Shown here one piece after another: positions 11,152 through 45,297 of a stretch of 46,695 bases of DNA. The DNA is taken from IMG/VR virus record IMGVR_UViG_3300038701_000572, positions 1 to 46,695 of that record; one strand, written 5' to 3'. This DNA is from a virus. Positions within the stretch are counted from its first letter, which is position 1. The number at the start of each line of letters is the position of its first letter. The notes under the pieces are model-generated. The model ran no database searches. It worked only from the letters and a program-made list of their open reading frames with translations, and had not been told where the DNA came from. The position numbers and the translations under genes were made by a program.

Positions 11152-11179
11152 ATATAATCCACACCTTTTGTGATTATAT
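11152..11179. promoter_or_regulatory. TATAATC palindrome before small terminase
   Basis: ATATAATCCACA and TGTGATTATAT form an 11-bp stem with one bulge. Each arm holds TATAATC, one per strand, and the plus-strand copy has an extended -10 (TGATATAAT). A leftward -10 for terS is possible, but no clear -35 is seen. Similar elements occur at 26937 and 35404. Confidence 0.45.
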
Positions 11180-15436: not shown

Positions 15437-16027
15437 TTAAAACAAACTATCAATGTCGAAGTCTTGCGCCGCCTTGGTCGCCTCCGAGCGTAGCTCGTTA
15501 ATGCGTGATTGCAAGCTAGCTCGAATCGCCTTGCGTTGCTCGTTATCCATCTTGGTTTGAAGGATAATGATAGCTTGTTCCTCGGTAAGCTCTTGCCCCT
15601 TCGAACTCTTAACGAGTTCGACAAAAGCTTTCGCAAAGAATATATCTACGTTAGCTTTCTTGGTTGCTCCACCGCTCGCACGTTCCTTAGTCATACGCCC
15701 GCCTTTGAGCATATCAACTAGCTCATTGAATGCCCCTACCTTCTCGGCAACCGCTTCCTTAGCGCTCATGCCCGACTCATTAAAAAGCTTGTCCGTTAGG
15801 CTTGCCGTTCTATCTTGCATAAATTGGCTCAAGCCATAAGCTAGCAAAGACTTCGGGTTCTCGCTATCTGCATCCATCACCTGACTAAACTCGTCGGTTA
15901 GCTCAATAACAAGTGTATCAAGTGGCTCCATCTCCGCTAGTTTGTAACCCTTCTCTAGTCCGGTCACGTCGAATAGTTTGATAGTTACTTGCTCATTGCT
16001 TAGTTCAAAAGTAGTACGAGTTTTCAT
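15437..16027 (-). CDS. Early protein, paralogue of the 17071-17613 product
   Basis: 196 aa, soluble, helical, family unknown. It shares with the other paralogue YGLSQ-x-x-QDR (residues about 85-94), then GG-x-x-KK-x-x-(V/I)D-x-FFA-x-AFV and KG-x-E-x-T-x-EQA-x-x-x-LQ, then RKA-x-R. It ends in DFDIDSLF, one of five [hydrophobic]-[D/E]-x-L-F termini here. AAGGA lies 9 bp before ATG 16027. A strong terminator follows. Separate terminators around each paralogue and different promoter use suggest independent expression. No enzyme motif is visible. Confidence 0.75.
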   Translation of the reverse strand: MKTRTTFELSNEQVTIKLFDVTGLEKGYKLAEMEPLDTLVIELTDEFSQVMDADSENPKSLLAYGLSQFMQDRTASLTDKLFNESGMSAKEAVAEKVGAFNELVDMLKGGRMTKERASGGATKKANVDIFFAKAFVELVKSSKGQELTEEQAIIILQTKMDNEQRKAIRASLQSRINELRSEATKAAQDFDIDSLF

Positions 16028-16763: not shown

Positions 16764-16863
16764 ACTTTTTTTCACCTGGGTTAAATGCCTTCTTTATATC
16801 ATCCCACCGCCGCCAGATTATATCATCCATGATGCTCGCAGTTTATGCTTGAACTCCAGACAT

Positions 16864-17070: not shown

Positions 17071-17613
17071 TTACGAGAACAGGTCTTCTAGGTTGAAGTC
17101 TTCAACTGCCGAAGCTGCTGCTGCTTTAGCCTTTTCAATGTGCTCTTTGATTTCGGCTGTTTGACGTACAGCTTTACGAGTATCGGAATCCATATCCTGG
17201 AGAACAAGAACTGCTTGCTCCACAGTGATCTCTTTACCCTTGGTAGCTGCAAGTGCAACAAACGCCTGAGCGAAGAACGTATCAATTGAAGGTTTCTTAG
17301 CACCGCCACCTGTAGATACACGAGCTTCTTTCCATAGGCCTGACTTCAAGGTTTCGAACGTCTTAGCCATTTGAGCAAGCTTCTCATCAGTCTGGCAAGG
17401 TGCCGCACGGTCTTGAAGAATCTGGCTTAGACCGTAAACCGCTAGGCTCATCACGCCTTCACCGTTCTGGAATTGTTCCGGCAAGTCTGCCAGGCCGAAA
17501 ACTACTTCTTCGACTACGTGAGCCGACGCTTCACCTTCAGTGTAGCCTAGACGTTGAACGATTACTGCTGTACAGTCTGCATTAGGAACAAAGTTGAAAT
17601 TTTTACGTGCCAT
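17071..17613 (-). CDS. First leftward early protein (paralogue family)
   Basis: 180 aa, soluble, unrecognised. It shares the YGLSQILQDR, GGGAKKPSIDTFFAQAFV, EQAVLVLQDMD and RKAVR segments with the 15437-16027 product, and ends DFNLEDLFS. The promoter at 17767-17795 and AAGGATAGCT before ATG 17613 are both strong, so it is probably abundant and early. It has its own terminator. A takeover protein or an adaptor that binds a shared partner through the DLF tail is possible, but nothing enzymatic is visible. Confidence 0.75.
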   Translation of the reverse strand: MARKNFNFVPNADCTAVIVQRLGYTEGEASAHVVEEVVFGLADLPEQFQNGEGVMSLAVYGLSQILQDRAAPCQTDEKLAQMAKTFETLKSGLWKEARVSTGGGAKKPSIDTFFAQAFVALAATKGKEITVEQAVLVLQDMDSDTRKAVRQTAEIKEHIEKAKAAAASAVEDFNLEDLFS

Positions 17614-17807: not shown

Positions 17808-18025
17808 GATTTTTTCGTGGCAAACTTTGTGCCAGAATGTACGGCATACTATGTGGAGTTTTTCACATCCCAATTTAAAATAATGGTTGACAGCGCAAAG
17901 TTTACATGTTATTCGCGCGTTCCTCTATATATACCCGTCCCCGTCCCCGTCTACAGCCACCGAAATTGGCTAAACTATCAGCCATCCGTTAATTGGCTGT
18001 TTACAAGTTGTATCACTAGCATACA

Positions 18026-18054
18026 ATTATATAAAGTAAGACGAAGACTCACAC
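18026..18054 (-). promoter_or_regulatory. Leftward member of a symmetric promoter pair
   Basis: Reading leftward: GTGTGAGTCTTCGTCT (18054-18039), seven bases, then TATAAT (18031-18026) and TGTATG. The rightward partner has the same 16-mer at the same distance from TATAAT. The 16-mer takes the place of the -35 box, so an activator or alternative recognition is implied. Confidence 0.65.
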
Positions 18055-18143
18055 CATACGCCACATATGCCCTCTCAGGGTTATATAATATATATATATT
18101 AACCTGTACACGGGTATGCACCACAACGTGTGAGTCTTCGTCT
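18039..18143. repeat. 16-bp perfect inverted repeat around an AT-rich core
   Basis: Arms at 18039-18054 and 18128-18143 are exact reverse complements, 73 bp apart. The interval contains CCCT-CTC-AGGG and GGTTATATAATATATATATATTAACC, itself nearly palindromic. Candidate operator pair or origin. Confidence 0.8.
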
Positions 18144-18156
18144 CATTTGATATAAT
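18128..18156 (+). promoter_or_regulatory. Rightward member of a symmetric promoter pair
   Basis: GTGTGAGTCTTCGTCT (18128-18143), seven bases, then TATAAT (18151-18156) with an extended -10 TGA. It starts the replication operon about 80 bp before the first gene. Confidence 0.7.
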
Positions 18157-18239
18157 GTTATGTCAGACAAAAACAAAGCTTGTAAGCTGAAAAGTTCTGT
18201 TTTATTGTGATTCCATTGATTACAAAGGAGAAGTTAGCT

Positions 18240-18785
18240 ATGGCAGTACCTGCAGCTACCCGTCGAAGAATAAATAACCTGAGAAAGAAAGCAAACGAAA
18301 TTAAAATGGTATTGGGGAACCTTAAACAAGGCCTGGATACTGTAGAGGTTACTGTGGACTTGAATACACCCCACGCAACATGTCAGGGCTTTCGCCGTTA
18401 TTTAGGTAATGTACGAGAGCTAGCAATTGAAGGTGTGTTGGAGCCTTCAGACCTAAGTTTGTATGAAGACCTGATTTGTTACAACTTCAAGCCAATTCCT
18501 AATACTATGAACATCCTTCTTACTAGGAAGTTCCCGGTTAACCCAGAGAATGACGCATCGCATGACGCTGTACTTAATATGCGACCTGGTGTTAGTGCAA
18601 CGGCAAGAAGTAATCTGCAGGAACATATGGAAGAACTCTACACTATGTGTGGTGAAGTTAAACCTGTAGTTTCTATGGTGGAAGATGATGACTTGGCTGC
18701 TATTATGGCGGAAATGAATACCCCGACGCAAAGCGAACTGGAAGAAGAGTTTAATAGTAAGTCAGGATATGACGATTTGTTTTGA
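18240..18785 (+). CDS. First rightward early protein
   Basis: 181 aa from ATG 18240, preceded by AAAGGAG; an upstream in-frame ATG at 18207 lacks a ribosome site. The basic N-terminal helix (RRRINNLRKKANEIK) could contact nucleic acid. The middle is mixed and the C-terminus is acidic (MVEDDDLAAIMAEMN) and ends SGYDDLF, matching the DxLF termini of four other proteins. No family recognised. The TGA stop begins a TGATATAATCT motif. Confidence 0.75.
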   Translation: MAVPAATRRRINNLRKKANEIKMVLGNLKQGLDTVEVTVDLNTPHATCQGFRRYLGNVRELAIEGVLEPSDLSLYEDLICYNFKPIPNTMNILLTRKFPVNPENDASHDAVLNMRPGVSATARSNLQEHMEELYTMCGEVKPVVSMVEDDDLAAIMAEMNTPTQSELEEEFNSKSGYDDLF

Positions 18786-18793
18786 TATAATCT
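18783..18793 (+). promoter_or_regulatory. TGATATAATCT motif at a stop codon
   Basis: An extended -10-like TGATATAAT starts on the stop codon and lies 21 bp before the next ATG, so a promoter here would give an almost leaderless message. Half-palindromic with TATTATATA just before the next ATG. Confidence 0.35.
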
Positions 18794-18813
18794 GAGTAAG
18801 GAGGTATTATATA

Positions 18814-21391: not shown

Positions 21392-21420
21392 AATAAATAT
21401 TTCCAGTGGTAGATTTCCTA

Positions 21421-21449
21421 TTGACAACATTATATAATTATATTATATT
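21421..21449 (+). promoter_or_regulatory. Rightward sigma70-like promoter
   Basis: TTGACA (21421-21426), a 17-bp AT-rich spacer containing TTATATAAT, and TATATT (21444-21449). It restarts transcription ahead of the zinc-ribbon gene and the helicase cluster. Confidence 0.75.
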
Positions 21450-21504
21450 ATATAAAGTTTAATAAAGTTGTATACATAGCAACGATAAGATAGGAAACAC
21501 CGAT

Positions 21505-26936: not shown

Positions 26937-26968
26937 TTATATAATCTCAAGCGCACGAGATTATATAA
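26937..26968. promoter_or_regulatory. Perfect TATAATCTC palindrome
   Basis: TTATATAATCTC (26937-26948), eight-base loop AAGCGCAC, and GAGATTATATAA (26957-26968), a perfect 12-bp inverted repeat 36 bp before the ATPase ATG. It contains TATAAT on both strands. Regulatory role inferred from position and from similar elements at 11152 and 35404. Confidence 0.55.
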
Positions 26969-35404: not shown

Positions 35405-35433
35405 ATATAATCTTTGAGCGTGTAGATTATATC
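35404..35433. promoter_or_regulatory. TATAATCT palindrome at the convergent end
   Basis: ATATAATCT/AGATTATAT, 9 bp, around TTGAGCGTGT. The leftward copy begins at the TGA stop of the 1735-aa gene (TGATATAATCT). Same motif as at 18783 and 26937. Confidence 0.5.
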
Positions 35434-43414: not shown

Positions 43415-45297
43415 TAGGTAATCTGACCTCCCATTTCATACTCTATGTGAATGTTACGAATTGTAAACTCCGGTTCACTTGTAACTATTTTAATACTAAA
43501 AAATCCAGCTGTCAAAATAGTATTTAAGTCACGTCTGTCTTGTGGAGTAAATACGATAGGTTCATCCCATAGAATGTTTTCGTTTAATCTGTCTCGCGTA
43601 CCGATTTGAACAGTGAAGTCGTCAAGCGCCTCAATATCAAATTGAATGGTGCTTACCGTCTTGTAATGTTCGTAATCGGGCATGATGTTACCATCACGGT
43701 CAAGACGCCCCAGAGGTATATCGTGACGCTCCCACACGGCTTCAATTGGCGTTGCATTATATAATCCCGTTTCTGTGGGTTTATATAATTCCGGCTCTAC
43801 TTCTAGTGACATATACAATGTATTTGCGAACACCTTTGTGCTTCGGTTAGATTCCCAGGTACCAGTTTGTTCCCACGGCCCTTCCTGATCGTCCCAAGGA
43901 CGTTTAATGTAGGGTAGGTTCTGTCCGTATGCTGCGGTAATAATTGGCTGCGGCAGGACTCGAACTTCCCAGTTATCATAGCTCCAGTTATAGACCATAA
44001 CCATATCACACACATGCGGTGCTAGGTTCGGGTCGGATGAACGGTCTTCGACTGACGCACTTGGGAAGAAGATATAAACTTCGTTCGTGTCGTCACGCTT
44101 AACTACGAATGTGTTTGCGTAGTATTCTTTGTGCAGCAAGTTAAAGAACCACTTACGTACACGGCCATTTGCCAGTGACTTAAACTTGATACCATTGTGC
44201 ATTATGATGTCAGTGGTTGTCACTACAAAGTGTTCGTTACCAACTTGTACTACACAGTCAGTAGCGAGGATGCCCTGAGTATCAAACAACGGAGTTGTCT
44301 GGAATACGTATTGGCCACCAATGTAGCGGGAAATCCAAGTTGAGTCTGACTTGTAGATAATGAAGTTATCGTTTAGCTCAAGACCGTCAAGGATAATACC
44401 TGGACTTGGTAGCGTGTTGATACCAGCCTCACCACCAATACGGGTGATGTCCCAGTCACTTGGTAGCTCACCTGGGTCAGCAGAGGATGACCAATAGATT
44501 TTGCTTAGGTCGAAACCTGTACCTGCCTCACTTACGCCTAAGCCCATGAGGAAGTAACCAAACTTACGAACCACATAGAATCGAAACTCAGGTGGGTTCG
44601 GGTCAAACTGGTTAGGCGGAATCGGGTCTGTCGGCGTACCTGCTGGTGGTAGTGCATCTGCGGGGGCTGGAACGATACGACCATTTGCCCACATACCTGC
44701 ACCAACTACAGTTTCGAGTTCGTACTCTTTATCAACTGGTTCGCTGATTGCACCGGAGTTAGTGTCACCTGGTTCAGGTGGTTCCGGCATATCCAAGTCC
44801 CCACTGACTTGCTCACATGCTGCTTGCATATCCGCGTAGAAACCTAGGTTCATATTGACGTTAGGAATCGGGTGGAGCTGCGGAATATCCTGCATTACGT
44901 TGGTAGTTTGGTCGTAGTATTGTGGACGGTCTACCGCGTTGTTAGCAATAATCAAACCATTAAAGTTTACGAACGTCCAAGTAAATTCCCCACCTGATGA
45001 GTATGGGTTACTAGGTCGAGTGATGTCGATGTTCGTACCTTCGTTCAGTAAGTTGAGCGTGTTACGACCTGCAACAATCCAACGTAAATCATTCTGGTTT
45101 ACTGTCCAGAAAAACAGTCCTGTCTTTTCGTTCTGCGGGATGAAGTCAGTGAGGGTGTATCCCCCACTGCGTTTCCATCCGTCAATGTCAGAGCGAAAAT
45201 TATCAGACTCATTCACAGCGTCAGGTGGTAACTGGTCAGGACGTGCATCCTTAATCACACCTGTCAAACGAGTCATACGATATTTAGCTCGTGTCAT
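43414..45297 (-). CDS. Tail nozzle protein
   Basis: 627 aa, predicted almost all beta. N-terminus TRLTGVIKDARPDQLPPDAV and SDNFRSDIDGWKRSGGY resembles P22 gp10-like packaged-DNA stabilisation and SU10-type nozzle proteins. Pro/Glu-rich insertion near 165-230. An inverted repeat (TTATATAA) at 43757-43788 lies within its codons for LYKP and LYNA. It forms the short tail's tip that closes the DNA channel. Placed between fibre and ejection genes. Confidence 0.72.
   Translation of the reverse strand: MTRAKYRMTRLTGVIKDARPDQLPPDAVNESDNFRSDIDGWKRSGGYTLTDFIPQNEKTGLFFWTVNQNDLRWIVAGRNTLNLLNEGTNIDITRPSNPYSSGGEFTWTFVNFNGLIIANNAVDRPQYYDQTTNVMQDIPQLHPIPNVNMNLGFYADMQAACEQVSGDLDMPEPPEPGDTNSGAISEPVDKEYELETVVGAGMWANGRIVPAPADALPPAGTPTDPIPPNQFDPNPPEFRFYVVRKFGYFLMGLGVSEAGTGFDLSKIYWSSSADPGELPSDWDITRIGGEAGINTLPSPGIILDGLELNDNFIIYKSDSTWISRYIGGQYVFQTTPLFDTQGILATDCVVQVGNEHFVVTTTDIIMHNGIKFKSLANGRVRKWFFNLLHKEYYANTFVVKRDDTNEVYIFFPSASVEDRSSDPNLAPHVCDMVMVYNWSYDNWEVRVLPQPIITAAYGQNLPYIKRPWDDQEGPWEQTGTWESNRSTKVFANTLYMSLEVEPELYKPTETGLYNATPIEAVWERHDIPLGRLDRDGNIMPDYEHYKTVSTIQFDIEALDDFTVQIGTRDRLNENILWDEPIVFTPQDRRDLNTILTAGFFSIKIVTSEPEFTIRNIHIEYEMGGQIT

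What the first reader, a model, noticed from the sequence alone, without database searches (positions are those of the whole stretch)
18026..18156. Mirror-image promoter pair with a shared 16-bp element
GTGTGAGTCTTCGTCT occurs as two exact inverted copies. Each lies seven bases before TATAAT facing outward (18151 plus, 18031 minus), and bases after TATAAT are also similar. The 16-mer sits where a -35 box should be and does not resemble TTGACA. The 73-bp core is AT-rich and partly palindromic. This looks like a switch: a phage or host activator binding both arms, or an origin.
Basis: seen in the sequence. Interest (0 to 1): 0.7.

Follow-up and report, generated by a model that had tools for sequence, protein, structure and literature searches.

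The report
Mirror-symmetric phage replication origin (predicted)
The two mirror-image 16-base copies are the inner ends of 35-bp arms around a very easily melted spot, and some 20 related phages carry the same layout with different arm sequences, so it is most likely where this phage starts copying its DNA rather than a simple pair of promoters.

Summary
GTGTGAGTCTTCGTCT occurs exactly twice, inverted, at 18039-18054 (-) and 18128-18143 (+). It is the inner end of a 35-bp arm pair (86% complementary, 73 bp apart); TATAAT faces outward in both arms.

The window is an IMG/VR phage record; its nearest named relative is Vibrio phage VS-ABTNL-3. In 35 related genomes the strongest widely spaced inverted repeat scores at least 17 in 22, never twice in one genome, and in 0 of 210 shuffles. 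For 22 elements with an A+T-rich core (score at least 15), 20 cores hold the least stable 28-bp stretch of the whole genome. Many arms carry direct iterons. Arms match within an element (mean 23.4) but not between phages (7.0; shuffled 6.8).

Best explanation: a bidirectional replication origin. A phage initiator binds the mirrored arms and opens the central A+T tract, between the divergent replication and structural gene arms. A divergent operator/promoter role may be layered on top; symmetric TATAATs inside the arms are special to this window.

Not shown: initiation, binding, or the initiator's identity. The window's arms lack clear iterons. The GC-skew minimum here is confounded by gene direction. 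I found no earlier description.

The parts
18020..18054 (-). Left arm of the mirrored element (35 bp)
   Evidence: Inverted repeat of 18128-18162, 86% complementary; top widely spaced inverted repeat of the window
18128..18162 (+). Right arm of the mirrored element (35 bp)
18039..18054 (-). 16-mer GTGTGAGTCTTCGTCT, left copy; inferred core of an initiator binding site
   Evidence: Exact match; binding is inference
18128..18143 (+). 16-mer GTGTGAGTCTTCGTCT, right copy; inferred core of an initiator binding site
   Evidence: Exact match; binding is inference
18055..18127 (.). 73-bp core between the arms
   Evidence: 60% A+T; halves weakly dyad-symmetric, p about 0.01
18080..18108 (.). Central A+T tract, inferred DNA unwinding element
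   Evidence: Second least stable place of the window by nearest-neighbour energy; the matching tract ranks first in 20 of 22 elements
18151..18156 (+). TATAAT in the right arm, possible -10 box facing right
   Evidence: -35 position GTGTGA is poor; transcription not tested
18026..18031 (-). TATAAT in the left arm, possible -10 box facing left
   Evidence: transcription not tested
17071..17613 (-). First leftward gene, phrog_28928 family (unknown function); this family lies beside the element in many relatives
   Evidence: model pLDDT 90, no PDB match
15437..16027 (-). Second member of the same family
   Evidence: Profile search E 3e-32
18240..18785 (+). First rightward gene, 181 aa, no detectable relatives; an initiator candidate by position only
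   Evidence: No family match; not tied to the replication-side family of relatives

Best explanation
The element is the phage's bidirectional DNA replication origin, built with mirror symmetry. A phage-encoded initiator binds the two inverted arms (here one 35-bp site per arm with the 16-mer as its core; in many relatives two or three direct iterons per arm). Initiator complexes on the two arms, perhaps in contact with each other, strain the DNA between them and melt the A+T tract at the dyad centre. Helicase and primase load, and forks leave in both directions, into the replication-gene arm on the right and the structural-gene arm on the left. Shown by sequence: the layout, its recurrence, the melting tract, and turnover of arm sequence with symmetry kept. 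Inferred: binding, melting, initiation, bidirectionality, and that the initiator is phage-encoded. The site probably also separates divergent transcription, and the TATAATs may be -10 boxes.
For: Mirrored arms are the top widely spaced inverted repeat (score at least 17) in 22 of 35 related genomes, never twice in one genome, and in 0 of 210 shuffles. In 20 of 22 elements with A+T-rich cores the core holds the least stable 28-bp stretch of the whole genome, within about 20 bp of the dyad centre. Starting instead from the least stable place recovers mirrored arms in further genomes: G023, G019, G026, and more weakly G015 and Kuura. 57% of arms carry direct repeats above the 95th percentile of random places in the same genomes, many with periods of 7-8, 10-11 or 20-23 bp (count includes the two arms of the doubtful Desulfofustis element). 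Arm sequences agree within elements (mean 23.4) but not between phages (7.0, shuffled 6.8), as expected if each phage's initiator has its own specificity. The element lies in the divergent intergenic region in the window, VS-ABTNL-3, G001, G006 and several others.
Against: No replication, binding or melting data. The window's own arms lack clear direct iterons, and its melting tract ranks second, not first. In some relatives the neighbouring ORFs are not divergent, and 13 of 35 genomes do not pass the repeat threshold, some possibly because contigs are incomplete. The initiator is not identified. GC skew follows gene direction, so the minimum here is not independent evidence.
Confidence: 0.78

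Rival explanations
1. A divergent operator/promoter switch: a phage regulator binds the two arms and controls two outward promoters (early versus late arm); the A+T core is simply promoter-region DNA.
For: Divergent position; TATAAT symmetric in both arms; outward promoter scores slightly higher than inward ones in the set (5.67 versus 5.27); a perfect TTGACA-17-TATAAT lies outside one arm in G009. The window also has six dispersed palindromes with TATAAT-like half-sites, so a regulator with that taste may exist.
Against: Symmetric TATAATs are not found in the arms of any relative. An operator pair does not predict iteron arrays or that the core is the least stable place of the genome.
Confidence: 0.15
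2. A packaging or end-processing site (cos/pac-like) bound by terminase.
For: In several relatives the element lies 1.5-4 kb from terminase genes.
Against: In the window the large terminase gene is about 8.7 kb away. The VS-ABTNL-3 record, linear and called a complete genome, ends about 3 kb from the element, though its ends may not be the physical ones. Iterons around a melting tract are not typical of packaging sites as far as I know.
Confidence: 0.04
3. A structured RNA: the arms pair in a transcript that crosses the region.
For: The arms could base-pair in RNA.
Against: Long loops (50-157 bases), direct iterons within arms and a central melting tract have no obvious RNA meaning. The element lies upstream of both divergent genes, so neither gene direction would be expected to transcribe all of it.
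Confidence: 0.03

Closest known systems
Herpes simplex virus oriS and its origin-binding protein (read in PMC12543377)
   Same: Inverted initiator sites (Box 1 and Box 2) on both sides of an A+T-rich spacer that opens.
   Different: No homology sought or claimed; the phage arms are longer or iterated, the spacer is 50-157 bp, and the phage initiator is unknown.
Iteron-type origins of plasmids and the lambda origin (general features read in PMC5043065)
   Same: Repeated initiator sites next to an A+T-rich unwinding element.
   Different: Here the sites stand as two inverted arrays around the unwinding element; according to the review the A+T region of iteron plasmids, oriC and lambda is not always flanked by binding sites on both sides.
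PLE satellite origins with RepA (PMC7145576, PMC8263062)
   Different: Three semi-palindromic direct iterons in one array, not mirrored arms; the initiator is of RepA_N type.

Membership tests
Iteron/DUE replication origin (general kind) | A+T-rich tract of unusually low stability | tested here: met
   Rank 1 of the genome in 20 of 22 elements, rank 2 in the window
Iteron/DUE replication origin (general kind) | Repeated initiator sites (direct iterons) | tested here: inconclusive
   Met in many relatives; the window's arms show no clear direct iterons
Iteron/DUE replication origin (general kind) | A cognate initiator binds the repeats and replication starts there | not testable with these tools
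   Needs binding and replication assays
HSV oriS-type origin | Inverted initiator sites flanking an A+T-rich spacer | tested here: met
   As architecture only
HSV oriS-type origin | Recognition by a UL9-type SF2 origin-binding helicase | not tested
   No specific search was made; named helicase in the window is UvrD/Dda-like, SF1
Divergent sigma-70 promoter pair | -35 and -10 hexamers with suitable spacing on both sides | tested here: inconclusive
   TATAAT present on both sides, -35 position GTGTGA matches 3 of 6
Divergent sigma-70 promoter pair | Transcription starts on both sides | not testable with these tools
   Needs 5'-end RNA-seq
DnaA-dependent origin | Cluster of DnaA boxes | tested here: not met
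   At most one box-like sequence within 200 bp of an element; none in most

The most novel reading that the evidence does not exclude
A broad group of environmental tailed phages replicates from mirror-symmetric origins whose initiator sites have been replaced again and again while the symmetry and the central melting tract were kept, implying a rapidly changing, so far unrecognised class of phage initiator.
Probability: 0.45. Interest if true: 0.75.

Novelty: new variant of a known kind. Interest (0 to 1): 0.6.

Why it matters
Origins of most phages known only from sequence are unmapped. Here a simple rule (widely spaced inverted arms around the least stable spot of the genome) points to one place in most members of a mostly uncultured phage group, and makes origin location and initiator identity testable. 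The complete turnover of arm sequence at a fixed architecture resembles the origin/initiator co-variation of PLE satellites, where an origin-directed phage nuclease gives a selective reason to change origins (PMC8263062).

Tried and rejected
Blastn of the region and megablast of 24 kb against phages: nothing. Peptide-pattern searches in IMG/VR with the window's polymerase, a tail protein and the 17.1-kb protein: nothing; capsid and alignment queries worked. The exact arm pair is not found elsewhere in IMG/VR. Third-position GC skew as independent replication evidence: uninformative. DnaA boxes: mostly absent. Fold searches of the two flanking gene families in the PDB: no significant match; one borderline hit to an unnamed viral protein (E 0.0016). 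Homology of the window's 18240-18785 product, and of the Vibrio phage's corresponding gene, to the replication-side family of relatives: not supported. The Kuura repeat at 35.2 kb and the 119X/PaP2 repeat at 42.3-42.9 kb lack an A+T core and may be something else. The Desulfofustis top hit lies inside a gene; it was still in the promoter and iteron counts and was dropped afterwards. T7, as an unrelated control, has no such element (top score 12.5); it is the only unrelated phage tested. Literature searches found no description of this element.

Full report
WHAT IS THERE. The 16-mer GTGTGAGTCTTCGTCT is found exactly twice, inverted, at 18039-18054 (-) and 18128-18143 (+). It is the inner part of 35-bp arms (18020-18054 / 18128-18162) that are 86% complementary with 73 bp between them. 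TATAAT lies at the same distance in both arms, facing outward. The core has a central A+T tract, 18080-18108, largely palindromic, and its halves match weakly in dyad (p about 0.01). An exact 16-mer pair alone would not be rare in the whole window (0.29 expected), but at this kind of spacing it is (0.002).

WHERE IT IS. The window is an IMG/VR virus record with phage capsid, portal, terminase, DNA polymerase, a DUF3987 primase-like protein and a UvrD/Dda-type helicase. The nearest named relative is Vibrio phage VS-ABTNL-3 (capsid 74%, polymerase 57%). Genes run left from 17.6 kb and right from 18.2 kb, and the element sits between them. The cumulative GC-skew minimum is at 18127, but skew follows gene direction and third-position skew adds little.

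THE COMPARATIVE RESULT. Between the corresponding divergent genes, VS-ABTNL-3 and the IMG/VR phage G001 have the same layout with different sequence: arms of three AAAAATT-type repeats (one left-arm repeat carries a substitution), and arms of three ATCGGGGTAAT-type repeats. I then examined 35 related genomes. The best widely spaced inverted repeat scores at least 17 in 22 of them, the second best never exceeds 16, and none of 210 order-2 shuffles reaches 17. Two of those 22 (Kuura, 119X) lack an A+T core. For the 22 elements with score at least 15 and an A+T-rich core, 20 cores contain the least stable 28-bp stretch of the entire genome, within about 20 bp of the dyad centre; the window's ranks second and G009's is not special. 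Starting from the least stable place instead recovers further mirrored arms. Many arms are arrays of direct repeats with periods near one or two helical turns, or 7-8 bp. Arms are alike within an element (mean 23.4) and unlike between phages (7.0, shuffled 6.8); the window's arms do not resemble those of its closest relatives.

INTERPRETATION. Mirrored binding arrays around the easiest melting point of the genome, with sequence turnover at preserved symmetry, are best explained as a replication origin opened by a phage-encoded initiator. This is inference: no initiation or binding was measured. A divergent operator is the main rival and may coexist; symmetric TATAATs inside the arms are peculiar to the window. 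Two gene families lie beside the element in many relatives: a phrog_28928-like family with 28 members in 20 genomes, and a second family of 23 members that includes the replication-side neighbour in several genomes. Neither has an informative fold match, and the window's own right-hand gene could not be tied to the second family. The initiator remains unidentified.

CAVEATS. The A+T threshold used to define the 22 elements favours A+T-rich cores, although rank 1 in a genome is far stricter. The promoter and iteron counts included one doubtful element, Desulfofustis. The genomes are related and some contigs may be incomplete. Neighbouring genes in unannotated contigs come from simple ORF calling. 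Only one unrelated phage, T7, was scanned as a control. The window itself lacks iterons.

KNOWN OR NEW. By layout it works like herpes oriS and belongs, if the inference holds, to the general kind of iteron/DUE origins, with symmetric inverted arrays as the variation. Coupled change of origin and initiator is known in PLE satellites. I found no earlier description in the papers searched; that library lacks most subscription journals.

Noticed in passing
window 11152-11179, 16796-16823, 18785-18812, 26939-26966, 35405-35432, 43759-43786: Six copies of a dispersed palindrome ATATAATCT-N10-AGATTATAT with up to 3 mismatches (0.02 expected), mostly intergenic; its half-site resembles the TATAAT parts of the mirrored arms. 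VS-ABTNL-3 has none of the TATAAT-N14-ATTATA form.
   Followed up: partly
window 21420-21460: The least stable place of the window is a promoter-like TTGACA with a run of TATAATs on both strands between genes.
   Followed up: no
window 15437-16027 and 17071-17613; two copies also in L003, L078 and L250: The phrog_28928-like family is duplicated in the structural-side early region of several relatives; several members end in an acidic D-L-F-like tail.
   Followed up: partly
G009 (L259-L261) and G021 (L285-L287): These relatives have dispersed palindromes of their own: GGGCGGGT-N11 five times and AATACGTG-N20 four times.
   Followed up: no
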